This document shows, piece after piece, positions 6,152-38,771 of a DNA stretch of 47,233 bases (its first letter is position 1; each line of letters opens with the position of its first letter). Both the position numbers and the translations under genes were made by a program. The DNA comes from Nanobdellota archaeon. GTDB lineage: Archaea > Nanobdellota > Nanobdellia > Pacearchaeales > GW2011-AR1. The notes beneath the pieces are model-generated. The model had not been told where the DNA came from. It did not search any database and saw only the letters and a list, made by a program, of their open reading frames with translations. Location of the stretch: the NCBI GenBank assembly GCA_020053375.1, contig JAGVNG010000031.1, positions 1-47,233 on the forward strand, given 5' to 3'.

Positions 6152-7045
6152 TCAAACTTCAAAGACATCCAAATCCTTTGCTAGGAATGTGTTCTTGAAG
6201 ATTTTCTGCGCTTCACTTAATATCCTTAATGGGTCCTTGTCGTATCTCTCGCTTAAATGCGTTAAAATTAATTTCTTCACCTTCGATTCTTTTGCAATCT
6301 CGGCAGCCTGTTTTGAGGTCATATGCTTGTGTTCTCTTGCCAGTTCATGCAATTCAGCATCATAGGTTGATTCAATTATCAGCGCATCCGCATCTTTTGC
6401 AAGAAGATGCATATTTTTGTTTGCCATGCTATCCATCACAAAGCATATTTTCTTTGAGTCAGCAAGATATGTAAGATTCTTTGCTAAATATTTTTTCCCA
6501 TTATGGATTATATCCTTTCCCTCTTTTAATTTATGGAGTAATGGTCCCAATGGGAGCCCTGATTTCTGCAGTTTTTTCTTGTCTATTCTTATCTGCCCTT
6601 TCTTGACAAAGCAGTATGCATTACAGGGTATTCCATGCACCATTAATTTGGATTCAAGGTAAAACTCATCATTTTCAAAGAATTTTCCGTTAACCTCCTC
6701 AACTTCTATTTTTATTCCTGCAGCGGATGGAAATGCAGTAAGCAAATCTTTCATGTGCCTCTTTATCCCCTTAGGACCATAGATAAAGAGGGTTTTTTTA
6801 TATCCATTAAGAGAAAGAGTTTGTATAAGCCCAGGAATTCCAAGAACATGGTCTCCGTGCCAGTGTGTAACCAGAATCCTTGTTACTTTTGTAGGGCTTA
6901 TTCCAGCCATCCTGAATTGTCTCTGTGTACCTTCTCCGCAATCAACAAGAATATTTTCTCCATCATAAGTTAGAAGCATTGCCGGATGATTTCTTTTTAT
7001 GCTTGGAAATGGTCCAGATGTTCCCAAAAAAGTAACCTTTATCAT
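6152..7045 (-). CDS. rnz: Ribonuclease Z
   Basis: FLGTSGPFPSIKRN, HWHGDHVLGIPGL, HMTSKQAAEIAKES, TRNase Z architecture. Confidence 0.95.
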   Translation of the reverse strand: MIKVTFLGTSGPFPSIKRNHPAMLLTYDGENILVDCGEGTQRQFRMAGISPTKVTRILVTHWHGDHVLGIPGLIQTLSLNGYKKTLFIYGPKGIKRHMKDLLTAFPSAAGIKIEVEEVNGKFFENDEFYLESKLMVHGIPCNAYCFVKKGQIRIDKKKLQKSGLPLGPLLHKLKEGKDIIHNGKKYLAKNLTYLADSKKICFVMDSMANKNMHLLAKDADALIIESTYDAELHELAREHKHMTSKQAAEIAKESKVKKLILTHLSERYDKDPLRILSEAQKIFKNTFLAKDLDVFEV

Positions 7046-7144: not shown

Positions 7145-7399
7145 TTATTCTTTTTTTAATGCTGTTGATGCGGGAGATATAAAAATAATTGTATCTCCTC
7201 GTAGAAAGGTTAACCCGACATTTCTCTTTACTTCGTTGTTTTGCATTTCTTTGGTGTTATCCAAGACCAAATTGATATGGATATCAAAAGCCAATAATGT
7301 CCCAACAAACTGCTTGTCTCCTTTCAGATGCACCAAAACTTCTTTTCCCTTGGAATTGTTTAGCAAGTCCAAAGGTCTCTCGATTCCGTTAACCATCAA
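7145..7399 (-). CDS. Sm-like (Lsm) archaeal RNA-binding protein
   Basis: RPLDLLNNSKGKEVLVHLKGDKQFVGTLLAFDIHINLVLDNT ... FLRGDTIIFISP. Confidence 0.93.
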   Translation of the reverse strand: MMVNGIERPLDLLNNSKGKEVLVHLKGDKQFVGTLLAFDIHINLVLDNTKEMQNNEVKRNVGLTFLRGDTIIFISPASTALKKE

Positions 7400-7424
7400 T
7401 TAGTTTTGGGAATTTTGTTTATAA

Positions 7425-7444
7425 ATATTTCCGTTAGGAAATAT
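7425..7444. promoter_or_regulatory. Inverted repeat ATATTTCC-gtta-GGAAATAT at the lsm promoter
   Basis: 8-bp perfect arms, adjacent to a TATA-like box for the minus-strand lsm gene. Confidence 0.55.
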
Positions 7445-7553
7445 CGATTTGAGAAAACAGAAATTTTCGATTCGTAACAAAATACAGCAAGATATTTAAA
7501 TCACTTTTTTCAACTAATCCTATGAATAAGGGAGAAATACATTTTTAGATAAA

Positions 7554-7916
7554 ATGCATAAAGGAAGAAAAATTTCAGGTGGAAAATATTCAAAAAGAAG
7601 AAAGAAAAGGCTGTATGAGCGACCAGGACAAAAAAGGATAGTAAAACTTGGAAAGGAAAAAATAAAAAGTAAAAGGATGAGGGGTGGAAAATTAAAGGCA
7701 TTCCTAAGTGGCGCAGAATTCGTGAACGTTTCTGTAAAAGGAAAAAATAAAAAGACACAGATTAAAAATGTTCTTGAAACCCCCTCGGATAAATTCCTTG
7801 CAAGACAAAATATAATAACCAAGGGAACAATTATTGAGACAGAGATGGGTAAAATAAGAATAACAAACAGACCAAGTCAGGAAGGGGTTTTGAACGGAGT
7901 TCCTGCTGGAAAATAA
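7554..7916 (+). CDS. rps8e: 30S ribosomal protein S8e
   Basis: GRKISGGKYSKRRKKRLYERPG ... NPRNI-like NIITKGTIIETEMGKIRITNRPSQEGVLNGV. Confidence 0.93.
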   Translation: MHKGRKISGGKYSKRRKKRLYERPGQKRIVKLGKEKIKSKRMRGGKLKAFLSGAEFVNVSVKGKNKKTQIKNVLETPSDKFLARQNIITKGTIIETEMGKIRITNRPSQEGVLNGVPAGK

Positions 7917-8063
7917 TTTTCTCAAATTTAAGTCTTTTTTCTTAACATTACCTTCAATCGTCGTCTATAAAAACCTGCCTTGCACAAATTTGGGCAAGTT
8001 GCACAATAGAGTTTAAAGTTGCACAAAAAGGAAATTTTATATATTTGAAGTATAAGTAATGTG

Positions 8064-8918
8064 ATGCCTTCACCATACAATTTTAGAAGAGGATGGGAAA
8101 GCGAACATTTAGCCAAGTTTATATTATCAAAGTTCTCCTTTGTAGCAGAACCTTCAACCATTTCAGATGATTTAGGTTCTGACTTCTTTTGTACTCTATT
8201 TAAGGTTGAAGATGGAATATATCTCCTTCCTCAAAACTCGTTTGCAATACAAGTCAAAAGTAAAAAAGATGTAGATAGAGATAATAACAAAATAGAAATA
8301 ACTGATAAACAATCCTACTTGAATGGATTAGAAATACCATTCTTTGTGGGGGTAGTTGATAGAGATAATTTAAAATTAAGCATCTATGTGGGGGAATACC
8401 TCTGTGATTATTTTTCGCTTCTTCCAAACCATGGAGAGGTTCAAAAAGTATTTATAGAATTAATTGAAGAAAGAAGTGAGCCGTTAAAAATGTTTAGAGT
8501 GGAGGGTGATAAAGCTTATATTGAGTTTCCGAAAGTACTTGAAATTGAAGCTGGTTATGAATATGCTTCAGACCCTGATAAGATTAAGGATTTATTTAGT
8601 CTTTGTAAACTAATTCAAGAGAATATTGCTTCAAAATTAAGCCACGAATACATTTTCAAAAAATCCAATAACAACTTTTTTTATATCTATACTGGAGGGA
8701 CTTCAGTTCAACATTTTAGAACAAATTTTAAAAAAAGGTTAGCGGAAGTTTTCTTTAATTTGAAGTGGTTACATGATACCAACTCTTTGCCAAAAGAGGC
8801 AATCAAATCAGAGTTTGAAATCTATAAAAGACTTTATTGTGATTTACTTGATAGAGAGGGTAATTTGCCAGACTATTTGACTAAAATATTTGATGAGTTA
8901 AATAGGTTAATGACTTAA
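8064..8918 (+). CDS. DUF4365-like predicted PD-(D/E)XK nuclease
   Basis: N-terminal pattern RGWESEHLAK ... DDLGSDFFC ... FAIQVKSKK (E...D...QxK). Confidence 0.55.
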   Translation: MPSPYNFRRGWESEHLAKFILSKFSFVAEPSTISDDLGSDFFCTLFKVEDGIYLLPQNSFAIQVKSKKDVDRDNNKIEITDKQSYLNGLEIPFFVGVVDRDNLKLSIYVGEYLCDYFSLLPNHGEVQKVFIELIEERSEPLKMFRVEGDKAYIEFPKVLEIEAGYEYASDPDKIKDLFSLCKLIQENIASKLSHEYIFKKSNNNFFYIYTGGTSVQHFRTNFKKRLAEVFFNLKWLHDTNSLPKEAIKSEFEIYKRLYCDLLDREGNLPDYLTKIFDELNRLMT

Positions 8919-9131: not shown

Positions 9132-9271
9132 TTGATTGTTAAAGCTGTTTAATTTAAATACTTTTACGCAGAATTGTCTTTGTTTAATAAGTAGGCGAGA
9201 GCGGGGATTGTCGCATTAAGGGACTTTTGAGTTTTAGGTAAGTTTTTATATAATACCTCATAAATTTGTAT

Positions 9272-12200
9272 ATGAAGGCAGATTTATTCAATGAAAAGAC
9301 AATAAGTAAGTTTATATTGAAAATCGAGCCAAATTCTAAGCAAAAAAGTGCCTCTAAGAAATGGATTGAGTTATTAGAAAAAGATGAACTTCAAGAAGAG
9401 GTGTCTAATTATCCTAGATTTACGGAAATTATATTAAAAGAGATTTTAGGATACGATACACTTAATTTTAAACACGAAGAAAAGAATATGGAATTTCCAT
9501 TTAGAGACAAATCTGGAAACTTTTTAGTATGTTTTGAAGCAAAAGGAACAAAAACTAGCGATTTATGGGCTTTACAAGGCAGAAGCATAAAAATAAGAGA
9601 AACACCTGTAAATCAAATAAATGACTACCTCTATAAAAACAAAATTCCTTTTGGAGTTTTAACAAATTATCGGGAATTTGTTTTATTCAAAAGAGAAGAA
9701 GGATACACTAAGTTCCATAAGTTAGACTTCTTTGATATTAAGAACAATCCTGAAAAATTAAAAGAGTTTATAGCTATATTTTCCAGAGAGAGCTTTGAAG
9801 GAAAAGAGACTGAAAGATTGTATAACCAATCAATAACAGAGGAGAGGAATTTTACAAAAGAATTCTATAAACTGTACCATGAAACAAGACTTATGATTCT
9901 AAAGGAGTTCAAAGAAAGTGGAATTGAAAATGAAATTTGCTTACATTATTCTCAACTATTTTTGAATAGATTAATGTTTATCTTCTTTGCAGAAGATAGC
10001 GATTTACTTGAAAAGAGATATTTTGAAAATAAGATTTTAGAAGTTCTTGATAAAAGTGGAGGAATAGATGGGTATACTAATTATGTTTTTGGGAAGATAA
10101 ACGGGATTTTCAGAGAGTTAGATAAAGAAATTCCTAAGCAAATAAAAGGTTTTAATGGAGAATTGTTCAAAGAAGAAATTGATGGAAGGTTGTCTTTCAA
10201 GGATTATAGAAACCCAAATTTCTTTAAAGACGTATTTCAAAATTATAAATTAGACAAAAGTTTAGAACTAAATGAAAATGATAGACAAATCTTCAACAAG
10301 CATAAAAATAAACTAAACAAGATAATTGAAAATATTTTATTGATGGCTTCTTTTGATTTTGAAACAGAAGTTAATGTTAACATTTTAGGTCATATCTTTG
10401 AACAGTCTATTTCAGACATAGAAAACTTGAAAGAAGAAACATCCTCAAAAAGAAAACAAGAAGGCGTTTTTTATACTCCTGAGTATATAACAGAGTATAT
10501 TTGTAGAAATACTATAGTTCCTTATCTCTCAAAAAGTGGGACTAATGACATTAATCTGTTAATAGAAGAGTATTCAGAGAATATGGGGGAGTTAGAAAAG
10601 AAGTTTAAAGATATTAAAATTTTAGACCCAGCTTGTGGCTCTGGAGCTTTTTTGATTAAATCAACTGAAATTTTGTTTGAAATATTTGAAAAAGTACAAT
10701 GGGTTAAAGAGAACTATGGGGAATATCAAGCGAACAGGGGATTAAAGAGAAAAAGTAATTTTAAAGGACAATCAACATTAAAGAAATGGGATGAAAGAGG
10801 AGAAATAAAAAATATTATAGAGAACAATATTTTTGGGGTGGATATCAACGAAGAATCTGTTGAGATAACTAAGCTATCTTTATTTTTGAAAATAGCGACA
10901 AAAAATAAAAAGTTAATTGACCTTTCAAAAAATATTAAACAAGGCAATAGTCTAATAGATGACGAAGAAATTGCTGGTAAATTGGCTTTTAATTGGGATA
11001 AAGAATTTCCATTCAAGTTTGATGTTGTTATAGGCAATCCACCTTATGGTGCAAAAATGAATGAAGAGGAAGTAAAATTCGTGAAAAAGAATTATTCTGT
11101 TGGCAACTCAGAAACAGCACAGTTAATGATGGAGAAAGCATATTCTTTGCTTAAGGAAAATGGATATCATGGTTTTATAATTCCAAAAGCATTTACTTTT
11201 GTGTCTACTTGGGATAAAATAAGGAACAAATTTTTAGATGAATTGAATACTTTAATTGATTGTAAAAAGGTTTGGAAGGAGGTTAAGTTAGAGCAAATAG
11301 TGTATACTCTTCAAAAAGGAAATAAGTTGAGCAAATACAATTCTGGAATAAGAGATAATCAATCAATAAAAATTATAGCTAATGTGGACAAGTCACTTAT
11401 TCCTAAATTTGATGGCGTTTTATTAAACTCTTTAACAAATCAAGAGATTAAAATTGGTTCAAAAATTAAGGATATAAGGACTAATTTAGGAAAGATTGGG
11501 ATTAACAAATGGGGAGATGTATTCTACAAACAAATGAATCAAGACAAAAAAGGATTTAAGGTTTTGGGAGGTAATGAAATACAAAGATACTATAAGAGAG
11601 GCGTTAAGGGGTATATTGAAGAGAAGTATGTTAAAACAGACCAATCTTTAATAAAACCAAATTCTATTCTACTACAAAGAATAATTTCACATATTGAAAA
11701 CCCCATAGACCATTTAAAAATTTCTGGAACTATTTTTGATGAATCTGATTATAGGATTGTGAACACCGTTCATCAATTAAATCTGGATAAAGATGTCTCT
11801 AATAAGTATGTTTTAGCAATTATGAATTCTAATTTTATGAATTGGTTTGTTTACAGATTCGTGTTTGCTAAAGCGATAAGAAGCTTTCAGTTTTCAGGAG
11901 ATGTTGCAAAAAAGATACCAATTCCAAAAATCTCTTTAAAAGAACAAGAGCCATTTATAGAAAAAGTGGATTTAATGCTTAAGTTGAATAAAGATTTTTA
12001 TGAAAAGAGAGATAAAATCTTAAGGTTACTGAAACAAGAGTATAACCTGAGTAAAATTACTCAAAAATTGGAAAGATTCCATGAATTAGACTTTGACGGA
12101 TTTATCAAACAATTAGGAGTTAACAATTTGAGCATGAGTAAAAAGTCTGAACTACTTGATTTTTTTGATAAAAACAAGAAAGAGATATCAGAGATAGACA

Positions 12201-12298
12201 GTAAAATTGAAAAAACGGATGGCGAAATAAACAAAATGGTTTATGACTTATACGGAATCACAGACCCTAAAGAAAGAGAGATTATTAGAAATTCTTAG
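9272..12298 (+). CDS. Type IIG-like restriction-modification enzyme (Eco57I-type N6-adenine methylase fused to nuclease domain)
   Basis: DPACGSGAFL and NPPYG methylase motifs; N-terminal FPFRDKSGNFLVCFEAKG (D...ExK); C-terminal specificity region; TATA box ~25 nt before ATG 9272. Confidence 0.88.
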   Translation: MKADLFNEKTISKFILKIEPNSKQKSASKKWIELLEKDELQEEVSNYPRFTEIILKEILGYDTLNFKHEEKNMEFPFRDKSGNFLVCFEAKGTKTSDLWALQGRSIKIRETPVNQINDYLYKNKIPFGVLTNYREFVLFKREEGYTKFHKLDFFDIKNNPEKLKEFIAIFSRESFEGKETERLYNQSITEERNFTKEFYKLYHETRLMILKEFKESGIENEICLHYSQLFLNRLMFIFFAEDSDLLEKRYFENKILEVLDKSGGIDGYTNYVFGKINGIFRELDKEIPKQIKGFNGELFKEEIDGRLSFKDYRNPNFFKDVFQNYKLDKSLELNENDRQIFNKHKNKLNKIIENILLMASFDFETEVNVNILGHIFEQSISDIENLKEETSSKRKQEGVFYTPEYITEYICRNTIVPYLSKSGTNDINLLIEEYSENMGELEKKFKDIKILDPACGSGAFLIKSTEILFEIFEKVQWVKENYGEYQANRGLKRKSNFKGQSTLKKWDERGEIKNIIENNIFGVDINEESVEITKLSLFLKIATKNKKLIDLSKNIKQGNSLIDDEEIAGKLAFNWDKEFPFKFDVVIGNPPYGAKMNEEEVKFVKKNYSVGNSETAQLMMEKAYSLLKENGYHGFIIPKAFTFVSTWDKIRNKFLDELNTLIDCKKVWKEVKLEQIVYTLQKGNKLSKYNSGIRDNQSIKIIANVDKSLIPKFDGVLLNSLTNQEIKIGSKIKDIRTNLGKIGINKWGDVFYKQMNQDKKGFKVLGGNEIQRYYKRGVKGYIEEKYVKTDQSLIKPNSILLQRIISHIENPIDHLKISGTIFDESDYRIVNTVHQLNLDKDVSNKYVLAIMNSNFMNWFVYRFVFAKAIRSFQFSGDVAKKIPIPKISLKEQEPFIEKVDLMLKLNKDFYEKRDKILRLLKQEYNLSKITQKLERFHELDFDGFIKQLGVNNLSMSKKSELLDFFDKNKKEISEIDSKIEKTDGEINKMVYDLYGITDPKEREIIRNS

Positions 12299-12310
12299 TA
12301 TCATTTTAAT

Positions 12311-12439
12311 TTAACTCCATCTCCTCCGTCTCGCTAAAAAGGTTATTCTTCGTCTTCTTCCTTCTGGAGACCTTGCTACAAATGAAACTCTTCTTCTGAG
12401 AGGTACTCTCCTTCTTATAAGTGCAAATCTTCTTGCCAT
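12311..12439 (-). CDS. 42-aa Arg-rich micro-protein
   Basis: MARRFALIRRRVPLRRRVSFVARSPEGRRRRITFLARRRRWS; starts 2 nt after the stop of the 12442-12630 gene. Confidence 0.55.
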   Translation of the reverse strand: MARRFALIRRRVPLRRRVSFVARSPEGRRRRITFLARRRRWS

Positions 12440-12441
12440 TT

Positions 12442-12630
12442 TTATTGTTCTTCAAGTAGACCTTGGTCTTCCATCAATTTTAGGTATTTCTTTATCAGTT
12501 GTGGACTCTTTGTTATTCCTTGTTTTTCTAACTCAATTTTTAGTTCTCTTATACTAAGAGGTCTATTTTCTCTATCTAAGATAGATGAGATTTTTTCCAT
12601 AATTTCCTTTTGTGTTTTAGTCGTGACCAT
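12442..12630 (-). CDS. Small winged-helix/HTH-like protein
   Basis: ISSILDRENRPLSIRELKIELEKQGITKSPQLIKKYLKLMEDQGLL. Confidence 0.65.
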   Translation of the reverse strand: MVTTKTQKEIMEKISSILDRENRPLSIRELKIELEKQGITKSPQLIKKYLKLMEDQGLLEEQ

Positions 12631-12886
12631 TTATCTCCTCTTTTTCAAATTTTTCTTTATCTTCTAAAAAACCTTCCAAATGTAGATTTTCTTTGTCTAA
12701 TAAAAAAACAAAAACATCTGTTTGGGGATTTATATCCAATGCTTCTGCAAACTGTTTGGGTATTCTAACACTAAGCTGTTTACCATCATCGATTATTCTA
12801 ACTGGAATTCCTACTAAATTTTCTGGCTTATCCTCTTTCTTCTTATTTTGTTTTTCTTCCATTTTTGCATCCTTTATGATTTTCAT
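12617..12886 (-). CDS. AbrB/SpoVT-like DNA-binding protein
   Basis: GIPVRIIDDGKQLSVRIPKQFAEALDINPQTDVFVFLLD; ATG at 12886 or 12862. Confidence 0.65.
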   Translation of the reverse strand: MKIIKDAKMEEKQNKKKEDKPENLVGIPVRIIDDGKQLSVRIPKQFAEALDINPQTDVFVFLLDKENLHLEGFLEDKEKFEKEEINGHD

Positions 12887-13022
12887 AGAAGTCAATTAGA
12901 GTCTCAACAATCTGCGAATCTGTAGTTTTTCTTTCCACAAAATCCAGTTTGTCCATTCTCTTTTTAACCTCCTTTTTTACTCTGGTTTGGCAGTCCTTAC
13001 TTCCCATAAGAGACTTACTCAT
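12843..13022 (-). CDS. 59-aa possible ribbon-helix-helix-type regulator
   Basis: Hand-read ORF MSKSLMGSKDCQTRVKKEVKKRMDKLDFVERKTTDSQIVETLIDFYENHKGCKNGRKTK; just below ORF-track cutoff; overlaps start of AbrB gene. Confidence 0.5.
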   Translation of the reverse strand: MSKSLMGSKDCQTRVKKEVKKRMDKLDFVERKTTDSQIVETLIDFYENHKGCKNGRKTK

Positions 13023-13036
13023 TTCTCTTTTATAAA

Positions 13037-13081
13037 AGTATTCAAAGAATACTCTGAATACTAAGTATTCTTTGTATTCAG
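13037..13081. promoter_or_regulatory. Operator-like cluster of AGTATTC/GAATACT half-sites
   Basis: AGTATTC-aaa-GAATACT (13037-13053), GAATACT-a-AGTATTC (13056-13070), then GTATTCAG; immediately upstream of the regulator operon. Confidence 0.65.
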
Positions 13082-13263
13082 CATATTTAAGCTTTTCTAT
13101 ACAGCGGACGACAGATGGAAAGACTTAAATAGTCAATAGAACAATAGTTTATATCTGTCGGACGATAGATTATAGTAAAGACTGGCAGTCCTTACTTCCT
13201 ATCAGGGTAGAACGCAGTGGGAGGTTATCAAAAACTCCGTTCACCCACGACAGAATTTTAATC

Positions 13264-14301
13264 ATGGAAGATGAAATATACAAGATAACACAAGGGCAGA
13301 AGAAGCTTAGCGAATGGGGTGTAGAAGCTGATAAGCCCTTCAACTGGTCTGCTTACAACAATAGTCAGACCAAAGAGAAGATAATGTTCATAGAGCTTCT
13401 TAATGACCTCTGTCAATTAGTGGATGATAAAGACTCTGACATGTATGGAAGGGATAGAAAGTCAGTAGCTCATAAAATATTCTGTATTGGTCTCAAGGCT
13501 TATTCTAACACAAGCTCAAGAAGGCTTATCTCTGAATTAGAGTTATGTAAGAGAAAGGGTTTTTTGAATTCGGTTCCACATTTTAACACCGTGCTTAATT
13601 ATCTTGATGATATAAATGTAAAAAGAGTTTTGAATTATCTAATAGAGTTATCTGCTTTGCCTTTAGCACAACTTGAGAATCAGAGTTTTGCGATAGATTC
13701 CACAGGATTTTCAGAAAGAAAATACTTGGACAGATGGAGTGTCATAAGACAAGAATATTCTAAGCACAAAGCATACAAAAAAGCTCATTGTATTTATGGA
13801 ACTAAGAGTAATGTAGTGGTTTCAGCTATTATTACCGACGGCAATTCAGCAGATTCTCCAAGATTCAAGGAGTTGTTAAGTAGTGCTTCAAGAAACTTTG
13901 ATGTAAAGGAAATTACAGCAGATTTAGCTTATTCATCAAGAGAAAACCTACAACATGCTGAAAATCTGAATATAACCCCTTTCATTCCATTCAAGAAGAA
14001 CGCCATCGGAGCATCTAAGGGAGCAACAATCTGGAATAAGATGTATAAACACTTCAAAAACAATCCAGATGACTTTCTAAAGCATTATCATGCAAGGTCA
14101 AATGCAGAATCTGGCTTCTTTATGATAAAACAGAGGTTCGGAGACTTTGTAAGATGTAAAACAGACCTATCACAGACCAATGAAGTCCTTGCAAAAATAC
14201 TTTGTCACAACATTTGCGTTCTCATTCAAGAGGTCTTTTTATCAAAAATTGAAACTGACTTTTTTCTTTGTGCAAAACACTATGTTGCACAGCGTCGGTA
14301 A
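13264..14301 (+). CDS. DDE transposase (DDE_Tnp_1/IS4-IS5-like)
   Basis: AIDSTGF ... EITADLAYSSREN ... HARSNAESGFFMIKQRFGDFVRCK. Confidence 0.85.
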   Translation: MEDEIYKITQGQKKLSEWGVEADKPFNWSAYNNSQTKEKIMFIELLNDLCQLVDDKDSDMYGRDRKSVAHKIFCIGLKAYSNTSSRRLISELELCKRKGFLNSVPHFNTVLNYLDDINVKRVLNYLIELSALPLAQLENQSFAIDSTGFSERKYLDRWSVIRQEYSKHKAYKKAHCIYGTKSNVVVSAIITDGNSADSPRFKELLSSASRNFDVKEITADLAYSSRENLQHAENLNITPFIPFKKNAIGASKGATIWNKMYKHFKNNPDDFLKHYHARSNAESGFFMIKQRFGDFVRCKTDLSQTNEVLAKILCHNICVLIQEVFLSKIETDFFLCAKHYVAQRR

Positions 14302-14379: not shown

Positions 14380-15309
14380 ATGAGCTTCATAAAAAAATGC
14401 CCTGAATGTGGAAGTGTCGATATAACATATGATGCTCATTTAGGAGAAATTATATGTAATAACTGTGGGTTGGTTATCGAGGAGAAAATGGTTGATACAG
14501 GAATAGACCTCCAGGGCAAGTTTGATAAGGGTGAGAAAAAAGGCAGAGGAGGAGCCCCTATAAGCATGCAGAAATTTGACAAGGGGCTTACAACAAATGT
14601 GGGGGAGATTTCAGATATATACAAGCTCGACCCGAAGCAAACACGAAAATTCTTAAGGCTGAAAAAATGGCAGGAAAGAGTCTCAACCAGTATTGAGCGT
14701 AATTTAAGGCTGGCTATGGCAGAATTAAGAGTCATTGCTTCATATTTGAATCTTCCAAATGTTGTTAGGGACGAAGCTTCCAGAATATACAATTATGTTC
14801 TACAAAGGGGACTTGTAAGGGGAAGGAGCATGGAATCAGTAATTGCATCCTGCCTGTATGCTGCATGTCGTTCATATAATATTCCAAGAACTCTTGATGA
14901 GATGGCAACAGCATCTGATGTTGAAAGAAAGGAAATAGGAAGAACATACAGATTTATAATTCGAAAGCTGGGAATAAAAGTAAAACAAAGTTCTCCAAAA
15001 GATTACATATCAAGATTTTCATCAATTCTCAAGCTTTCTCCAAAAACGCAGAATGATGCAATAAAAGTTCTCAAGCAGGCAGAGGATGTCGAGCTTACCT
15101 CTGGAAGAGGTCCTGCTGGAATCGCCGCTGCTTCACTTTATGTCGCGGCACTGATAAACGATGAAAAGAAAACTCAGAGAGAAGTCGCGGATATTGCAGG
15201 TATCACCGAGGTAACGATAAGAAACAGGTATAAGGAGCTTATAGAAAAGCTAAAGCTCGAAGACAAGATAAAGCAGAAAGAAAAAGAAAGCAAGGAAAAA
15301 GTAAAATAA
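14380..15309 (+). CDS. tfb: Transcription initiation factor IIB (TFB)
   Basis: N-terminal zinc ribbon CPECGSVDITYD...CNNCGLV, two cyclin-like repeats. Confidence 0.96.
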   Translation: MSFIKKCPECGSVDITYDAHLGEIICNNCGLVIEEKMVDTGIDLQGKFDKGEKKGRGGAPISMQKFDKGLTTNVGEISDIYKLDPKQTRKFLRLKKWQERVSTSIERNLRLAMAELRVIASYLNLPNVVRDEASRIYNYVLQRGLVRGRSMESVIASCLYAACRSYNIPRTLDEMATASDVERKEIGRTYRFIIRKLGIKVKQSSPKDYISRFSSILKLSPKTQNDAIKVLKQAEDVELTSGRGPAGIAAASLYVAALINDEKKTQREVADIAGITEVTIRNRYKELIEKLKLEDKIKQKEKESKEKVK

Positions 15310-15453
15310 GATTTATTAATTCAATATTTTAAGACCATTACTAACTGCAACCCCTAATATAAAATTAAGCAGTTATTCTTTCTTCATTAAGTTATATTAA
15401 TCTTTCTTCTAACAGCAAACTTTATTAAAGAAAAAATTCCTAAAATTATTAAC

Positions 15454-15537
15454 GCGGGAGTGCCGGAGTGGTCAAACGGGTCAGCCTTAGGAGCTGATAG
15501 CTTAGTGCTTACATAGGTTCGAATCCTATCTCCCGCA
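15454..15537 (+). tRNA. tRNA-Leu(TAG)
   Basis: GCGGGAG/CTCCCGC acceptor, TCAGC-CTTAGGA-GCTGA anticodon arm, long variable arm. Confidence 0.93.
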
Positions 15538-15540
15538 TAT
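15515..15540 (+). repeat. Direct repeat copy 1 (att-like, within tRNA-Leu 3' end)
   Basis: aggttcgaatcctatctcccgcatat, 26 bp identical to 16753-16778. Confidence 0.92.
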
Positions 15541-15609
15541 TTGTATATTTGTTTATTAATCATTTCAAAAAACAAAAGATTTATATATTATAACGTATAA
15601 TTACGTAAT

Positions 15610-16428
15610 ATGGAAGAAATAGTGGCGAGAATAAGCAAGGGAAGTAAAATGGATCAAATCTACATACCAAAAAATAGAATAAGTCTGGAAAACGGCGCAT
15701 TTGTTATAATAAGACCTCTTTCTGAGCAAATAAAAAAGAGAGAAAATGTCAAGAAAGAAACCCCCTATTTTTACAGAATTAAAAAGATTGAACCAGTAAA
15801 AATGCGAATAATCAATGAAATATTCTCAATTATAGAAGGTAATGTGAAATCTTATGATAACATTATTATAACGGGCTCTATTCTCGAAATGGGATTTAAA
15901 TTCAATGATATAGACATAATCATATTATCCGAAGAAAAAATAAACGAAAACATACTGAAAGAAAAAATAGAATTAAAGACAGGAATAATAACCCATATTA
16001 TTTACCTTTCTAAAAAAGCGCTACAGCAAGGTTTGGAAATAGATCCTCTTTACCAATCAATGTTATCAAAATGCGTGTCAAAAAAAAGATTTTTTTTTAG
16101 ACTAAAAAGGAAAATAGAATATAAAATATTGGATTTGCACCTGTTGAAAAGTGAACCAATAATTCATAGTTTTGATATTTTAAATGGAGAACAAAAATAC
16201 CATTTTGCAAGAAATCTTATAGCCATAAAGTTATTTCTGGAAAACAAAAAAGTTGATAATGAAGATATTAATAAAGAAATAATAAAATTATTCGGATTAA
16301 AGGATATAAATGAAATAAAAGATAATTTGCTGGAAAAAAAGAAATTCCTTCATAAATATGAAAATTTATATAAACAACTTTCTAATACAATTCTGAGAAA
16401 TATAAAAAATGGTTCAAAACAGAAATAA
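15610..16428 (+). CDS. Nucleotidyltransferase-fold protein with AbrB-like N-terminal segment
   Basis: DQIYIPKNRISLENGAFVIIRPL; IITGSILEMGFKFNDIDIIILS resembles GSx(n)DxD NTase motif. Confidence 0.5.
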   Translation: MEEIVARISKGSKMDQIYIPKNRISLENGAFVIIRPLSEQIKKRENVKKETPYFYRIKKIEPVKMRIINEIFSIIEGNVKSYDNIIITGSILEMGFKFNDIDIIILSEEKINENILKEKIELKTGIITHIIYLSKKALQQGLEIDPLYQSMLSKCVSKKRFFFRLKRKIEYKILDLHLLKSEPIIHSFDILNGEQKYHFARNLIAIKLFLENKKVDNEDINKEIIKLFGLKDINEIKDNLLEKKKFLHKYENLYKQLSNTILRNIKNGSKQK

Positions 16429-16488
16429 ATTAATTGTCTTGCTGGTTGGGAATATATCCAATTCAATAATCCATACAATTAGCCAGAG

Positions 16489-16734
16489 TTGACAGACAAA
16501 TACAAAAGAGAATCAATTTCTAGTTTCGAAATTGCCATGAGATACAGAGAAAAAATGAATCCTCTAATCGAGCCTTTTTCCCTAACAGATATTGAACACA
16601 TAAAAAACAAGATTATCAAAAAAGTAACGGCAGAATTAAGGAGAAGAATTTTAAATTGTTATGAACACATAAATCTCTCTTTAATCGAAAAAGAAGTGGA
16701 CAGGACATTGAAAAGCCTCAAAATTTCTGATTAG
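16489..16734 (+). CDS. Small helical hypothetical protein, TTG start or ATG at ~16537
   Basis: Follows the NTase-like gene inside the tRNA-Leu insert. Confidence 0.4.
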   Translation: MTDKYKRESISSFEIAMRYREKMNPLIEPFSLTDIEHIKNKIIKKVTAELRRRILNCYEHINLSLIEKEVDRTLKSLKISD

Positions 16735-16752
16735 ATGATTATTGCTTATCAA

Positions 16753-16778
16753 AGGTTCGAATCCTATCTCCCGCATAT
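16753..16778 (+). repeat. Direct repeat copy 2 of tRNA-Leu 3' end
   Basis: 26-bp identity with 15515-15540. Confidence 0.92.
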
Positions 16779-16818
16779 AAAGGATTCGACTAATTGGTTT
16801 AAATGAAAAGGGAAGCTT

Positions 16819-16846
16819 ATAAAAGAAACCGCAAGGTGTCTTTTAT
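16819..16846 (+). other. Hairpin ATAAAAGA-a-ACC-GCAA-GGT-g-TCTTTTAT with GNRA tetraloop
   Basis: 8-bp plus 3-bp perfect complementarity. Confidence 0.7.
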
Positions 16847-16848
16847 TT

Positions 16849-16866
16849 GAATCCTATCTCCCGCAT
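16849..16866 (+). repeat. Direct repeat copy 3 of tRNA-Leu 3' end
   Basis: gaatcctatctcccgcat, 18-bp identity with 15521-15538. Confidence 0.88.
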
Positions 16867-17989: not shown

Positions 17990-20900
17990 TTAAACTCCTA
18001 TCAAATTATCTGCTGGGTTTTGATCTTTTTCCAGAAAGGGATTCACCTTAAGGTTTTGGGTATTTAACGAAGAAGATGATTGTGACGAAAGAGAGGTTGA
18101 ACCACTGCACGTCTCAGGGAAGAGTGCTTCTACCTCATCTTTATTGTTAAGAACATTATCAACATATGCTGGATCACCAACAAGCAAAAAGTTTCCGTGG
18201 CTATCTAGTTTCAGACTTTTATCAGCATTTGTTTGTAAGCATTGGGTATTCCAACCATTATAACCCCTCAATGCCCTTTTCCAATCAGAATAAGATACTT
18301 TAGAGAAATCTGTTTCTCTAACTGGACCTACAAAGATTGATGACCTATAACAATCATAAACTTTTGGATTAGGATTATATTTATTTATTAGATAATTTAT
18401 TCCAAACTTTATATTCTCAGAAAATTCCTGTACTTGAATTGTTGGATGTTCACCTATATTTATCTGCATAATTCCTTTGCTATTGCCATTATCCCCTGAA
18501 AGGACTCCATCAATATTTCCGTTGCAATATAAAGGATCCCCATCCCTTTCATAATCAATAATATTTCCATTTACAATTTTTCCGCATTGCCTTATTTTTG
18601 ATTCTTGATATGCTAACTGCAATATCAAACACTCAAAATTCTTTGCGCCTGTTTGCTCAGTTATTTTCCGGTCATCTTCTGAATCTATCTCATTTTCCTT
18701 TTTTATCTCTCTTGCTGCAAGAACGATTTCTTTTCCCAAAGCCTTCTGGCATTCTTCTTGTGTGCTACAGACAAGGCCACTTGGAGTTGTTTCTCCGCTG
18801 CTTGCAGGAGTGCCAAAATCTGCCGCGTTGATGCCAAAAATAATTAGCGCACCATCAATATCATTTTTCCCGATAAGACTCTTTATTAAATTAGCTTCTC
18901 TTTCTACAGTGCTATCAAGCCCTACCAAGAATATTTCTGATGAAACAGATTTCCAGATTTTCTCATCAGTGGAACCTCCCATGTAAGTCCATTCATTTGC
19001 TATTCCAAATTCAAAGTAAATAGGAGTCGCCTGTTTAACAGTGAATATCCCTTCTTGTGAAAATGACACTTTATTTGTAAACAACTCTACATTAGAAAGA
19101 ATACCTTTTCCTGTATTTGCCCTTGTTGCCTTCATGAGTATGTCTATACCTTGTTGAATAGTCTGATCAGATAATGAAGATGTAAATTCTTTAATTTCTT
19201 GAGACAATGCGGGAACAATTTCTACTGTTGTTGCATCCTGCCCTGTTTTCAAGCCAGAAGCGCCAGCTGACACTGCTTGATACCATTTCTGTTTGTCTAT
19301 GGACCAATACCAATTATTTCCAGAATAACTATAATAGATAGTGTTCTTGAAAAGTCCCAATCCTCCCCCATAATTGTATGCAAAGATAGGGGAAATAATT
19401 CCAATTTTTGATATCTCTTGGTGTTGCTCTTCTAAAATTTTACTAATTTCATCCTTAGGGGTTGCTGTGGCTGTTGTCTCTGTAGTAGTTGTCTTCTCAT
19501 CATTCTTCTTCTTGAACAACTCAAAAGCCAATTTGCTATAAACATCACCTCTTGTCATCAAAAGCCATCCTTTTTGGTAATTATAAAAGAACTTTCCTAT
19601 TACATCATTTATCTTGCTTATTTTTTCATTGTTGTCTCTGGTATTTTCTATGCCTGTTAAAGTGCTTTCAAAGTCAGGAGCATTTCCTTTGGCATTCAAA
19701 TCAGCCTGCGCCTGCGCATTAATTGCTTCAACAGTTCCATTCCGTATGTCCAGATTTCTTATGTTATCATTTACGCTTTGCATATCAAGCCAGCATTTTA
19801 TTTTTGTGTTTCCGCAATAGCCGACTTCAACCCATCTTTGGTTTTCCGTGTTTAGAAGCCCATCCGTTCCCTGTCCTGGATTGTTTGTCGCGCATATTCT
19901 GTAAATTCCCTGATTGTACAAGTCAGGATTTACCGTATTGCTGACACCTTCCTGCAAATTTGGATTAAGCATACTGTAAAGGCTTGGTGTTCCAGAGATG
20001 CATTCAGCCTCTGATTTCACATTAGTAGTAGACTGCTCTTTCAAATACTGGTCCTTTACATAATTCACTGTAAAGTCCGTCGATACTTGCTTGAATCCGC
20101 ATTCTTCCTGTCCATTGACAAGTATGCACATTTGTGAGTAACCAGAAGGAGCAGTAAAATCAACTGTGCTAGAATTGTATCCACCTTTTTGCACATATCC
20201 ATAACCAACAACCCTACTCATGGCAGTGTCATCATAATACGAACTTCTGGGAGCTCCTTTCAGATAAACTCTGTAATAAGCTCCCGTGTCTTTTCCTGCA
20301 AATATGTGATAAAATACTTTGTACTGTGAAACTGGAGGATTTGTTGCCGTTGTGAAAGGAATTTCATCAAACCTTCCCGTGAATTGAGGGGGTGAGTCGG
20401 CCTGTGTTAGGCTATCCAGTAGGTTTCCGCTGTTTGGATAAACCCCTGATGCAAAATTCTTGCAAAACTCTCCTCCGACTTCGTCGGTGCTTCTTGCCTT
20501 GAATGCCTTGAAGGAATCATCTGCATAATATTGTGTGAAATACGTGACTGACTTCTCCGCATTTTCCCATGCATTTGCAACCCCAAGATATTCTCCTCCG
20601 CCTCTCGTGCCTTGCCCAAGAGCGCTGCTCAGAACCGCGGGAATGGCTATCTTAGCAACTGGAAGGCTTTGTCTCCAGAAGAACTCGCACATATAAATGC
20701 TCTGAATTTCATCACATATGCCCACTGTTTTTCCTGTATCTATCTGTTCCCGCAAGCAGTCCCTATATGATTTCTGTATGCTTACCCAATTGTCCAATCC
20801 TGCCTTCACTCCTGTCAGGCAAACAGGCATACCTATTCCTTCATTTATGTTTGGCAGGCATAATGCAATGCTTCCTATTACCCCGCTCTGCACAACATCT

Positions 20901-23900
20901 GCAACAGGATATGCCCCGCCCAAATTGCATCTCGATGAGGGACATATTACAGGGTCGCAAACATTGAATAAGATTTGGCATTGGCCTGGAGACATGAAAT
21001 CCTCGCATTCAACTGACGGCACGTTTGCAGAAGGGCTTCCAACTTTTATTGATTCCGCTATTCCTGGCACCTTTACGTGGGCATTTGCTTTGCCCACAAT
21101 AGAAGGATATTGTTTCTGCACGCTTAATATTGCCTCCTCTGCCTTTCTTACAAGGCTTGCAACCTCGCTGTCCGATAGTCCTGAAAACCTCGAAAATGTT
21201 TCCTTTGAGCCAAGAACAACAAGCTGGGAGATGTCATCTCCTCCGCCCTCAAAGAAATCAACATTCCCATTTGTTCCAGTATTTCCAAGATAATAACTGT
21301 AAACCCTTCCTGATTCATCAAAGCTTCTTACATTTCCAAATCCTGGCAACGTTTGCGACATTGCAACATACCATCCTTTCTGAGTATCTAATGGAACAAG
21401 TGCAGGCGCTCCCTTGAACGGCTCTGTCTCGAAGTATTTTACCTCAGGATTGTTGTATTTATTACTATAAGAAGAACTATCAACTTTCTTGAATTGAAGG
21501 GCAAGTGGATTGACTGCATCTGTATTAATAAATAAATTATTGCCCTGTATTTCAAATGTTCTGTCAACAACATATGAATTGTCAAGAACAAGCATGTATT
21601 TTTTATTATTTGATATGTCTGTTAGAAGATAAACATACTCTGCATCTTTTGGAGAGAGATCCATTGTGATCTCAGTAGAAGCGCTGGTTGCTCTTCCTTT
21701 GAATGCCATTAAATTTACTGGAACGCTGCCAATCACCTGTGTAAACTTGCCTTTAACCTGTACCCATGTTTTAAGTGTAGAAAATTCAACGCTCTTGATA
21801 TCTTTTCTCGTTGATATAGAACCCCCTTCTCCAGGACTAAGTCCAAATTCGTCTAGGAAAGTATCTCTCTGCACTATTTCTTTCGAGTTTACATTGACAT
21901 TCGAGAGCAACGAGTAAAGTTTCTGCTGTGCCCTTGCATCGCCTGGATTTGTTTTAAGAACATTGCAATAGAACCCAACATCCCTCAACTCTTCAAAGTT
22001 GTAATTCTTGCTTTTGTTCCATATTTTAAATGAAAGAGCTTCCTGAATATCTTTTATCTTTATTTTCTCAGATGATTTTAATGGATTTGTAATTTCAGCA
22101 CTGGAGCAGCTGGCCAAATCTGAGGAAACCTTTACGGAATAATCTTTAATCAAGCCAGTGCTGTCAACTACATCTTCTGAAAATAATCCTCCACTCTTTA
22201 TTATATTTGCTTTATCTATATTCTCAATTTCATTATTTTGTTCTGTCAGGGTCTTGTAATACTTATCCACTTCGGCATCAATTTTATCTGAATTTTCAAA
22301 CAGACAATCCTGCAGTGTTGAATATACCTCACCATCAATCAATGTTTTTTCTCTCACCCACTTATTGCACTGGTCATACCACCCGTTAGGGTCCCTCATT
22401 ACTTTCTGTCTTGCCAATCCTTTTCCATTCAGATTGGATAGCAAATTATCAATAGTAAATATTGCACCCGTTGCCAGACAGGCAGTCTTCAATCCAGTAA
22501 CAACGTTTCCTAAATCAGAGGAAATCTTATCTAATTTTTTTACATCTTCATCAATGCTTTTTATTTTGTCTTGCGCTTTGTCGGGAGACAGTTTCATTAA
22601 ATCACTTCTTTTTTCTATTCCTATTTTGAACTTGAACGTTGTCTCTGTTCCTGAATAATCTATGTTTGGAAGCACAGAAACTTTTGCAACTCTTTTAAGG
22701 TTTATTTTTTGTATCGTGACTTCATAATTGCCTATGCCTGCCTGAGGAATCCCCTTCTTGAAAGAAACCGCTCTCTCAAAGCCAGCGCTTCTGGCTGTTC
22801 CTATAGCGAGAATATCAACATTGCTTTCATCTTTTATTGTTCCAAGTTTTATGTAAGTAGCAGTGGTTGAAGTGCTTGGAACACTTAATTTGCCCCCTGT
22901 TTCTATAATAAGTTTTTTCCCCTCTTCAAAACTCTTTCCCTTATCAGAAGCAAGAGCTTTTATTAAATCAATATTGGCTGATGTGAGCATTTGTCCACCA
23001 GTAATTCCCGCTTTTGTATAGTCGCTTGGAATTTGTGTAACTGGATAGAAGGTAGATGTGGTAGCCCATTTCCAGATATTATCTTCATACTTAAACCATA
23101 AAGAATTTGACGAAGCCCCCCTGTCAATAGTAAATAATGTTGAAGCGGTGTCCGTAACAGGTGTTTCCAAGTAAAATATCTCATTGTTTCTCAGTACAAA
23201 CTGAACAGGGGCGCTGGATGCATCGCCTATTTTTCTTGCATATCCTTCAACGCTGTATTCATCGTAACTTGGTTCATAAATTCCATTGAACGATATCTCC
23301 TTCACTTTCCCGTTTATTGTGACAGATCTTACGGAGCTCACATCACTTGAAAGCTTCAATGCATCGGAGCATGTTTCAGGAGCAATTTCATTAGGATATG
23401 CTTCGCTGAATTCCTTGCACAAATCAATCATTGTTCTCCTCTGCTGCATCTGCTCTGCGAAATATATCTTCCTGAAGAAAGTTTCCTTCCCAATGTTATT
23501 AGAACCATAATTCTCAGATGCAAAGCTCTTAAGCACTTCATCATAGTCATCAATTGCTTTTTGATAAGATGTAAGAGTGTCTTTGTCAAGCTCTGCATTA
23601 ACAGCTCCCGAGAAATCTTTTATTTTTATTTTGATGATATTGGTATTTCCCTTTGTGTCTTTGAATATTTCTTTTTCCTTAGAGTAGGTTACCCTGTCAA
23701 TTGATTCCTCAGTCACTGCAGATCTTCCAACCTCATAAACAGATGCACCAGCTCTTTTCACTCCAGTTGCAATCAAATTGAAAACATTGTTAGGCGACGT
23801 GGAATCTTCATAAAGAGGACCAAGCCTTGTTGAAATTTCTTCCAGCGTATTTTCATCCAACGTCTGGATAGCTTCTGTAAGGGCAATAAAAATTACCTGC

Positions 23901-25186
23901 AAATCTTCTTTCTTATTTGTGTTTTTTTCGGAGCCTATATATCCAACATAAATGCTCTTACCATCGCTTGTTTTCTCTACAAAGTCTCCCAGTCCCATGC
24001 TTCTGCTCTGTCCGTTAACTTCCAATTCAACTTTTGGAGCTGTTTTTAATGTGAAAGCCTTGCTTCCAAACAACCCGGAACCCTGGTCTTCCTTGCACTT
24101 TATCTCAACTCTTTCGTTTAGTCCGTATTTGTCCATGCTCAAAACCTCGCACTTTCCATCAAGGAAAGTTTCATCCTCTGCAACTTCCTGAACATCTGAG
24201 TTGACTTTTATTCTTGCCCTTGTGTCTGGGAAAGTGATGTCATCAAGCCTTATCCTCATGTTTGCCAGGCAGTAATTGAATCCAGTCATATATATTTTTT
24301 CAGATGTCGCACCTTCTTTCAATGAAACAGTGTTTGTCTTCTGCAGATTCCCTGTGTACCCTGTTTTTCCTGAATAAATGGAGATTGTTGCTCCATCTTT
24401 TTCAATATTTTCTGCTTTCAAAAATCCTCTTCCATCCCAGAATCCGTACGATTTATACCTGCCATTATCGAATTCATTCGAATCTATAAGAGGGAGATAA
24501 TAAGTTGCTTGTCCTACCCCAAATGCGTTCTCAATATTATATTTTATTTTGGCCGTCAAATTGCCTTCCACAACACAAACTTCCCCTACGTCTAATCCTA
24601 ACAATTTAGAATCCATACAATTAGTCAGCGCAGATTCATTTGGCTGCCTCTTTAAAACAATAACAGCAGAGCCAATATTTTCAAGAACAGGATAATTATC
24701 AAGTGTTGTGGATCTTCCTGTTCCCAAAGCAGCCTTGTTTGGATTGAAGCCAACTCCTGCAACTTCCTTTGGAGTCTGTCCGGAGAAGGTTATGTAATCA
24801 ATCGCCTTTACATCAACAAGAGGATTTATTTGTGTTGCAGCTATCTGGCAATAAACAGGAACATTCTGTTCTTCAAGCAAATCACTTCTAACAACAGCGG
24901 GAGTACATCCAAGGGGGGCCATCTGCAAAACAAAATCTTGTCCTGCTTCGCACATGCTTCTGTCAAACTGTCCGGGAGTTTCCCCGAAAAATCCTCCGGC
25001 AAAACTTCCTATTCCCCCAAGCGCATGGTAATTATTCGTCCTCGTATATCCTGCAGAGATAAATGACAAGCTCGATATAATTAAAATCCCGATTAGAACT
25101 GTTAATAATAGATTAAATTTCACATCAGCCTTTTTATCAATTAACAGTCCTGTTTTATTCATTAGCAATCTTTTTTCTCTTTCCAT
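17990..25186 (-). CDS. Giant (2398 aa) secreted surface protein with lytic-transglycosylase-like C-terminal domain
   Basis: N-terminal TM; Cys-rich core CDPVICPSSRCNLGGAYPVADVVQSGVIGSIALCLPN; C-terminal LAYQESKIRQC ... NSKGIMQINI ... NIKFGINYLINKY. Confidence 0.7.
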   Translation of the reverse strand: MEREKRLLMNKTGLLIDKKADVKFNLLLTVLIGILIISSLSFISAGYTRTNNYHALGGIGSFAGGFFGETPGQFDRSMCEAGQDFVLQMAPLGCTPAVVRSDLLEEQNVPVYCQIAATQINPLVDVKAIDYITFSGQTPKEVAGVGFNPNKAALGTGRSTTLDNYPVLENIGSAVIVLKRQPNESALTNCMDSKLLGLDVGEVCVVEGNLTAKIKYNIENAFGVGQATYYLPLIDSNEFDNGRYKSYGFWDGRGFLKAENIEKDGATISIYSGKTGYTGNLQKTNTVSLKEGATSEKIYMTGFNYCLANMRIRLDDITFPDTRARIKVNSDVQEVAEDETFLDGKCEVLSMDKYGLNERVEIKCKEDQGSGLFGSKAFTLKTAPKVELEVNGQSRSMGLGDFVEKTSDGKSIYVGYIGSEKNTNKKEDLQVIFIALTEAIQTLDENTLEEISTRLGPLYEDSTSPNNVFNLIATGVKRAGASVYEVGRSAVTEESIDRVTYSKEKEIFKDTKGNTNIIKIKIKDFSGAVNAELDKDTLTSYQKAIDDYDEVLKSFASENYGSNNIGKETFFRKIYFAEQMQQRRTMIDLCKEFSEAYPNEIAPETCSDALKLSSDVSSVRSVTINGKVKEISFNGIYEPSYDEYSVEGYARKIGDASSAPVQFVLRNNEIFYLETPVTDTASTLFTIDRGASSNSLWFKYEDNIWKWATTSTFYPVTQIPSDYTKAGITGGQMLTSANIDLIKALASDKGKSFEEGKKLIIETGGKLSVPSTSTTATYIKLGTIKDESNVDILAIGTARSAGFERAVSFKKGIPQAGIGNYEVTIQKINLKRVAKVSVLPNIDYSGTETTFKFKIGIEKRSDLMKLSPDKAQDKIKSIDEDVKKLDKISSDLGNVVTGLKTACLATGAIFTIDNLLSNLNGKGLARQKVMRDPNGWYDQCNKWVREKTLIDGEVYSTLQDCLFENSDKIDAEVDKYYKTLTEQNNEIENIDKANIIKSGGLFSEDVVDSTGLIKDYSVKVSSDLASCSSAEITNPLKSSEKIKIKDIQEALSFKIWNKSKNYNFEELRDVGFYCNVLKTNPGDARAQQKLYSLLSNVNVNSKEIVQRDTFLDEFGLSPGEGGSISTRKDIKSVEFSTLKTWVQVKGKFTQVIGSVPVNLMAFKGRATSASTEITMDLSPKDAEYVYLLTDISNNKKYMLVLDNSYVVDRTFEIQGNNLFINTDAVNPLALQFKKVDSSSYSNKYNNPEVKYFETEPFKGAPALVPLDTQKGWYVAMSQTLPGFGNVRSFDESGRVYSYYLGNTGTNGNVDFFEGGGDDISQLVVLGSKETFSRFSGLSDSEVASLVRKAEEAILSVQKQYPSIVGKANAHVKVPGIAESIKVGSPSANVPSVECEDFMSPGQCQILFNVCDPVICPSSRCNLGGAYPVADVVQSGVIGSIALCLPNINEGIGMPVCLTGVKAGLDNWVSIQKSYRDCLREQIDTGKTVGICDEIQSIYMCEFFWRQSLPVAKIAIPAVLSSALGQGTRGGGEYLGVANAWENAEKSVTYFTQYYADDSFKAFKARSTDEVGGEFCKNFASGVYPNSGNLLDSLTQADSPPQFTGRFDEIPFTTATNPPVSQYKVFYHIFAGKDTGAYYRVYLKGAPRSSYYDDTAMSRVVGYGYVQKGGYNSSTVDFTAPSGYSQMCILVNGQEECGFKQVSTDFTVNYVKDQYLKEQSTTNVKSEAECISGTPSLYSMLNPNLQEGVSNTVNPDLYNQGIYRICATNNPGQGTDGLLNTENQRWVEVGYCGNTKIKCWLDMQSVNDNIRNLDIRNGTVEAINAQAQADLNAKGNAPDFESTLTGIENTRDNNEKISKINDVIGKFFYNYQKGWLLMTRGDVYSKLAFELFKKKNDEKTTTTETTATATPKDEISKILEEQHQEISKIGIISPIFAYNYGGGLGLFKNTIYYSYSGNNWYWSIDKQKWYQAVSAGASGLKTGQDATTVEIVPALSQEIKEFTSSLSDQTIQQGIDILMKATRANTGKGILSNVELFTNKVSFSQEGIFTVKQATPIYFEFGIANEWTYMGGSTDEKIWKSVSSEIFLVGLDSTVEREANLIKSLIGKNDIDGALIIFGINAADFGTPASSGETTPSGLVCSTQEECQKALGKEIVLAAREIKKENEIDSEDDRKITEQTGAKNFECLILQLAYQESKIRQCGKIVNGNIIDYERDGDPLYCNGNIDGVLSGDNGNSKGIMQINIGEHPTIQVQEFSENIKFGINYLINKYNPNPKVYDCYRSSIFVGPVRETDFSKVSYSDWKRALRGYNGWNTQCLQTNADKSLKLDSHGNFLLVGDPAYVDNVLNNKDEVEALFPETCSGSTSLSSQSSSSLNTQNLKVNPFLEKDQNPADNLIGV

Positions 25187-38701: not shown

Positions 38702-38723
38702 ATGCGGGTAGAAGGGTTCAAAC
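38702..38723 (-). repeat. Second copy of tRNA-Leu 3' end
   Basis: 21/22 identity to 38771-38792. Confidence 0.88.
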
Positions 38724-38771
38724 TAAAAACCACCTGCGGGTTTTTGATCCTGCCCCATCGAACCCTTTGAA

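What the first reader, a model, noticed from the sequence alone, without database searches (positions are those of the whole stretch)
15515..16778. 1.24 kb integrase-less insert at tRNA-Leu carrying an NTase-fold gene
A 26-bp exact repeat of the tRNA-Leu 3' end bounds 15541-16778. The cargo is a 272-aa protein with a GSx(n)DxD-like motif (TGSILEMGFKFNDIDIIIL) and an AbrB-like N-terminus, plus an 81-aa helical protein. It lies between the tRNA and its trailer element, as expected of a site-specific insertion that rebuilt the tRNA 3' end. NTase-fold proteins are common in toxin-antitoxin and defence pairs (e.g. MNT/HEPN), so the pair may be an undescribed TA-like module mobilised in trans.
Basis: partly seen in the sequence, partly recalled or inferred. 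Interest (0 to 1): 0.75.

Follow-up and report, generated by a model that had tools for sequence, protein, structure and literature searches.

The report
Archaeal nucleotidyltransferase toxin-antitoxin-like gene pair
A small two-gene unit sits beside a transfer-RNA gene in a tiny-genome archaeon; the same pair recurs in dozens of related archaea and looks like a toxin-antitoxin system of an undescribed sort, but the second gene of this copy is broken and the move into the tRNA gene is not how the pair usually travels.

Summary
The repeat is real: the 3' end of tRNA-Leu(TAG) recurs exactly (26 bp) at 16753-16778 and again (18 bp) at 16849-16866. The 272-aa protein (P1) has a nucleotidyltransferase fold with its GS...DxD motif conserved in 55 homologues. 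The '81-aa protein' is not a gene as drawn. It is the tail of a ~110-aa gene (P2) that starts at 16409 and is frameshifted here by a 19-bp deletion.

P1-P2 is a conserved, mostly overlapping operon in about 56 Nanoarchaeota loci (54 of 200 genomes of the order have P1 matches). P1 genes of the AbrB-like type carry a TATA box plus a TTACGTAA dyad directly before the start codon (52/53 contain TACGTA; 0.9 expected). P2 is a four-helix protein with no HEPN motif and no structural match. All seven one-gene lesions found are in P2, none in P1, as expected if P2 is the toxin or effector and P1 the antitoxin.

Insertion at the tRNA is real in this genome but exceptional: no other sampled locus has tRNA repeats, and the genome holds a single Xer-type recombinase. 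I read it as a new variant of NTase-based toxin-antitoxin modules, inserted once at a tRNA. Toxicity is untested.

The parts
15454..15537 (+). tRNA-Leu(TAG), intact; the left boundary of the insert (attL-like)
   Evidence: ARAGORN and Rfam RF00005 61.5 bits
15515..15540 (+). copy 1 of the 26-bp direct repeat (tRNA 3' end plus TAT)
   Evidence: the repeat finder D1; alignment
15575..15609 (+). predicted promoter-operator of the P1-P2 operon: TATA box (TTTATATA) then TAACGTAT-AA-TTACGTAA, ending at the ATG
   Evidence: TACGTA within 60 nt upstream of P1 in 52 of 53 AbrB-type loci against 0.9 in shuffles; 0 of 3 HTH-type
15610..16428 (+). P1: 272 aa; AbrB-like N-terminal domain (weak), NTase domain with G89 S90 D100 D102, helical C-terminal domain
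   Evidence: AF2 pLDDT 85; Foldseek to AAD(9) 7e-4, ANT, HalB, MntA; motif conserved in 55 homologues
16409..16734 (+). P2 gene, frameshifted: frame A 16409-16492 (27 aa then TGA), frame B 16489-16734 (81-aa remainder); 19 bp lost after about 16480
   Evidence: comparison with intact P2 of relatives
16739..16778 (+). copy 2: displaced tRNA-Leu 3' half (36 nt at 92%, 26 bp exact), right boundary of the insert (attR-like); starts 5 nt after the P2 stop
16779..16866 (+). tRNA trailer element: stem closed by AGGATTCGA with the T-arm part of copy 3, two inner hairpins, ending in copy 3 (18 bp exact, 16849-16866)

Best explanation
The segment carries one copy of a toxin-antitoxin-like operon found in Nanoarchaeota. 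P1 binds the dyad overlapping its own promoter through its AbrB-like N-terminus and represses the operon (inferred from the conserved operator). Its NTase domain keeps the small four-helix partner P2 harmless, most likely by nucleotidylating it as MntA does to HepT (inferred, not shown). P2 is the toxin or effector. In this genome the operon was inserted once into the 3' half of tRNA-Leu(TAG), which rebuilt the tRNA end and pushed the original 3' end and its trailer downstream. P2 then decayed by a 19-bp deletion, leaving a solitary antitoxin-like P1.
For: Pairing: a P2 gene directly follows P1 in essentially all of about 56 non-redundant loci, including diverged and HTH-headed paralogues. A P2-led search of 200 genomes finds no intact P2 without P1. 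Patchy distribution: 54 of 200 genomes for P1, 40 of 200 for P2, often several copies per genome. Autoregulation: the TTACGTAA dyad lies between TATA box and ATG in AbrB-type loci, absent in HTH-type. NTase: fold and catalytic motif. Lesion asymmetry: P2 broken with P1 intact in 7 loci (window, L108, L121, L133, L151, L158, L159), at least 6 events on the P1 tree; P1 broken with P2 intact in 0; both broken in 1. With P2 29% of the coding length, 7 of 7 is about 2e-4 if lesions fell at random (my calculation). Gene order NTase first, helical partner second, matches MNT-HEPN dyads, where HEPN is the toxin (PMC3710099). Insertion: repeat geometry and trailer position; P1-P2 is absent beside the TFB/tRNA-Leu(TAG) neighbourhood sampled in relatives.
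Against: No toxicity data. P2 has no recognisable nuclease motif, no HEPN Rx4-6H and no significant structural match. In P1 the third catalytic carboxylate is His in 49 of 55 homologues, so activity is not assured. The lesion test starts from loci found mainly through P1, and the loci are not fully independent. AbrB assignment of the N-terminus is weak (MazE_antitoxin best E 0.019, low pLDDT). A frameshift in a metagenome assembly could be an error, though a 19-bp loss is an unlikely one.
Confidence: 0.5

Rival explanations
1. P1 is the toxin (an NTase acting on tRNA or another RNA, as AbiEii or MenT do) and P2 is its antitoxin.
For: NTase toxins exist (MenT and AbiEii; PMC10435456, PMC12988326); the NTase motif is conserved.
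Against: P2 is lost while P1 with its active-site motif stays intact in 7 loci, and the reverse is never seen; loss of an antitoxin first should be lethal. P1 carries the DNA-binding-like domain and comes first in the operon, usual for an antitoxin.
Confidence: 0.15
2. P1-P2 is a regulatory or defence pair without addiction: P1 makes a nucleotide signal or modifies P2 as a signal protein (Hailong-like or aminoglycoside-NTase-like).
For: Foldseek hits include HalB of Hailong and aminoglycoside NTases over the whole chain; the HTH-headed paralogue matches PADLOC PDC-S09 and oligonucleotide-cyclase models weakly.
Against: P2 shows no membrane-channel character (predicted soluble-looking helical bundle); no match of P1 itself to a defence family; the self-operator is typical of TA loci.
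Confidence: 0.22
3. The tRNA repeats mark a site-specific integrative cassette class that moves by an integrase supplied in trans, the pair being its standard cargo.
For: attL/attR-like geometry with the insert trimmed to the operon (about 72 nt before P1, 5 nt after P2). Two other loci, L143 and L130, have P2 ending 58 and 7 bp from a tRNA 3' end.
Against: No tRNA repeat at any other locus; the genome has one Xer-type recombinase only. Proximity to tRNAs in 3 or 4 of about 56 loci is about what gene density alone gives (rough estimate).
Confidence: 0.15

Closest known systems
MNT-HEPN (MntA-HepT, type VII toxin-antitoxin)
   Same: Two-gene operon, NTase first, small all-helical partner second, patchy and mobile distribution; Foldseek links P1 to MntA
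   Different: P1 is twice as long, with an AbrB-like head and a helical C-terminal domain; the partner lacks Rx4-6H and shows no HEPN fold match; an operator is conserved
AbiEi-AbiEii / MenA-MenT (type IV) NTase toxins
   Same: NTase in a two-gene operon with DNA-binding capacity
   Different: DNA-binding-like domain is on the NTase itself; lesion pattern argues against the NTase being the toxin
Hailong (HalB NTase)
   Same: P1 model matches HalB
   Different: Partner is a 113-aa helical protein without membrane-channel character; operon small and self-regulated
DPANN AbrB-like-NTase-helical proteins (such as NEQ050-type 'MNT fused to HEPN'; an AbrB-like NTase protein of the same genome, L198:315-1115)
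   Same: AbrB-like head plus NTase plus helices in one chain
   Different: No P2 partner examined; only the NTase core aligns (45 columns, hhalign probability 33%); NEQ050-type is widely conserved rather than patchy (PMC6393860)
tRNA-gene integrative elements (tyrosine-integrase type)
   Same: tRNA 3' half duplicated at the far end, tRNA kept intact
   Different: No integrase, 1.24 kb, single case

Membership tests
MNT-HEPN toxin-antitoxin | MNT-type NTase with GS...DxD | tested here: met
   Motif in 55 of 55 (one E for the first D) and fold
MNT-HEPN toxin-antitoxin | Partner with HEPN Rx4-6H motif | tested here: not met
   43 P2 sequences: invariant residues are H22 and N57, no conserved R 5-7 residues before the H
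MNT-HEPN toxin-antitoxin | Partner with HEPN fold | tested here: inconclusive
   Confident four-helix model (pLDDT 94), no HEPN among the 50 listed Foldseek matches, none below E 0.5; HepT-like Pfam match in 2 of 43 at best E 0.015
MNT-HEPN toxin-antitoxin | NTase nucleotidylates and silences the partner | not testable with these tools
   Needs biochemistry
Toxin-antitoxin modules in general | Obligate, often overlapping two-gene operon, patchy distribution | tested here: met
Toxin-antitoxin modules in general | Self-regulated promoter | tested here: inconclusive
   Conserved operator-like dyad before P1 in 52 of 53 loci, but binding and repression by P1 are not shown
Toxin-antitoxin modules in general | One protein toxic, the other neutralises it | not testable with these tools
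   Only indirect support from lesion asymmetry
Hailong | NTase plus transmembrane effector | tested here: not met
   Partner is a helical bundle without evident transmembrane segments, by reading sequence and model; no dedicated predictor run
tRNA-targeting integrative element | tRNA 3' part duplicated at the far boundary, tRNA intact | tested here: met
tRNA-targeting integrative element | Own integrase, or one in the genome | tested here: not met
   None in the element; one Xer-type tyrosine recombinase in the genome; serine recombinases not searched

The most novel reading that the evidence does not exclude
P2 is a new, non-HEPN toxin family of Nanoarchaeota, silenced by an NTase antitoxin that carries its own AbrB-like operator-binding domain: an NTase-neutralised toxin-antitoxin type distinct from MNT-HEPN, in archaea for which almost no such systems have been tested.
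Probability: 0.35. Interest if true: 0.65.

Novelty: new variant of a known kind. Interest (0 to 1): 0.5.

Why it matters
Proteins of this pair match no curated family above its cut-off in Pfam, NCBIfam or PADLOC except generic NTase models, yet the pair occurs in about a quarter of the sampled genomes of one archaeal order, whose members have few known defence systems. If P2 is a toxin it would be a new helical toxin family under NTase control, and the conserved operator gives a ready handle for testing regulation. The decayed copies make a simple evolutionary test of which partner is the toxin.

Tried and rejected
Pfam, NCBIfam and PADLOC on P1 and P2: nothing above cut-off for P1 of the window. 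Sequence search of the PDB with P1, and with profiles of P1 and P2: only weak polymerase-X, DrrA and Mnt hits for P1, nothing for P2. IMG/VR scan: no viral relative. Rfam on the region: only the tRNA. First genome contigs attempt with the wide alignment failed, repeated with a closer one. Idea that the whole module is a tRNA cassette: rejected because other loci lack repeats. Apparent tRNA half copies in G060, G028, G029: they are intron-containing tRNAs, not inserts. Idea that the 81-aa ORF is a gene with a TTG start: rejected. Literature search for a described AbrB-NTase pair of DPANN archaea or for such tRNA inserts found none in the held library; that is no proof of absence.

Full report
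Observation. The window is a contig of a 679-kb, 33-contig archaeal genome. By shared contigs with named records, members of its GTDB family include Pacearchaeota MAGs. tRNA-Leu(TAG) at 15454-15537 is intact. Its 3' end recurs exactly over 26 bp at 16753-16778 and over 18 bp at 16849-16866. The second copy resembles the tRNA back to nt 49 (36 nt, 92%), but its T-stem is mispaired, so it is a displaced, decaying 3' half. The trailer follows copy 2, whereas trailers elsewhere in the sample follow the tRNA directly. The simplest reading is that copy 2 is the original 3' end and that the insert supplied the present one. This is inference.

The genes. P1 (272 aa) has no family match by itself. With 13 sequences in the alignment AlphaFold2 gives pLDDT 85 and Foldseek finds AAD(9), ANT(4''), HalB and MntA. 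G89, S90 and D102 are invariant in 55 homologues and D100 in 54. The position of the usual third carboxylate is His in 49 and Asp in 6. The N-terminus is AbrB-like by pattern (SKGSxxxQIYIPK...GDYV), with only weak profile support.

The second gene is not the 81-aa ORF. In relatives a gene of about 102-134 aa starts inside or just after the P1 stop. In the window this gene starts at 16409, reads MVQNRNKLIVLLVGNISNSIIHTISQS and stops at 16490. A 19-bp deletion separates it from the remaining frame.

Distribution. P1 matches 54 of 200 genomes of the order and P2 40 of 200; some weak P1 hits are other, ~200-aa NTases. Thirty-five loci in named genomes are mostly Pacearchaeota, Woesearchaeota and other Nanoarchaeota MAGs. 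The one 'Methanosarcinales' record is probably misbinned (my guess). No viral contig carries P1 at the sensitivity used. P2 directly follows P1 in essentially every locus, including a diverged clade and an HTH-headed clade with a member in this same genome (L032).

Regulation. In AbrB-type loci the start codon is directly preceded by TTTATAWA and TTACGTAA-TA-TTACGTAA. TACGTA is present in 52 of 53 against 0.9 in shuffles, and in none of three HTH-type loci. The exception, L166, also differs in the N-terminal motif (GINVDQ for GSKMDQ). I infer autorepression.

Which partner is the toxin. Of 53 assessable loci, 45 have both genes intact, 7 have only P2 broken, 0 have only P1 broken and 1 has both broken (counted). 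The P2 lesions are of different kinds (frameshift, nonsense, internal deletion, truncation) and need at least 6 events on the P1 tree. A P2-led search turned up no intact P2 without P1. This favours P2 as the harmful or dispensable member and speaks against P1 as a toxin held by P2. It does not prove toxicity.

P2. Forty-three sequences give a confident four-helix model (pLDDT 94). There is no significant structural match, no HEPN motif and no curated family. Hence it works perhaps like MNT-HEPN but cannot be filed there.

Mobility. P1-P2 is absent beside the TFB/tRNA-Leu(TAG) neighbourhood sampled in relatives G005, G008, G012, G013 and G030. At other loci the module is not bounded by tRNA repeats. 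In L143 and L130 it ends 58 and 7 bp from a tRNA 3' end, tail to tail and without repeats. The genome has one Xer-type recombinase. So one att-like insertion happened here, by an unknown agent: a lost integrase, Xer, or homologous recombination of a circle carrying a tRNA 3' half. The pair as such does not depend on tRNA sites.

Verdict. A real, conserved, apparently undescribed TA-like operon, partly decayed in this window. It is a new variant of NTase-based two-gene modules. Shown: pairing, fold, operator-like dyad, lesion pattern, repeat geometry. Inferred: repression, nucleotidylation of P2, toxicity of P2, route of insertion.

Noticed in passing
window 16779-16866 (+), 38703-38771 (-); L070 1218-1305; L081; L038; L051: tRNA trailer elements: 65-99 bp after a tRNA comes a second copy of that tRNA's own 3' end. 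The segment starts with the reverse complement of the host tRNA's T-arm part (clear in 6 of 7) and usually folds into a closed stem with inner hairpins. 7 of 99 sampled tRNAs, 0 in the reversed control; a 67-nt core 90% identical stands after tRNA-Leu and tRNA-Arg of this genome, each with host-specific arms. No Rfam match for the 16779-16866 element. Possibly a mini-mobile element or an RNA element; deserves its own study.
   Followed up: partly
L032 (G000:C19) 7368-8482: Second copy of the pair in the same genome, headed by an HTH-like instead of an AbrB-like domain, without the TACGTA operator; canonical Asp at the third NTase position.
   Followed up: partly
L198 315-1115 (G000:C26): AbrB-like-NTase-helical protein close to the only Xer recombinase gene found in the genome; resembles the DPANN 'MNT fused to HEPN' proteins.
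   Followed up: no
window 14380-15537: TFB and tRNA-Leu(TAG) are neighbours in many relatives, but the orientation of the tRNA relative to TFB and the large 17990-25186 protein varies, as if the tRNA had been inverted.
   Followed up: partly
window 9266-14301: A 1010-aa protein with weak similarity to PglX-type DNA methyltransferases (below cut-off) and an IS5-like transposase lie upstream of TFB: a mobile or defence-like stretch.
   Followed up: no
window 6152-7045 (-): RNase Z, the tRNA 3'-trailer nuclease, is encoded in the same window; may be of interest for the trailer elements.
   Followed up: no
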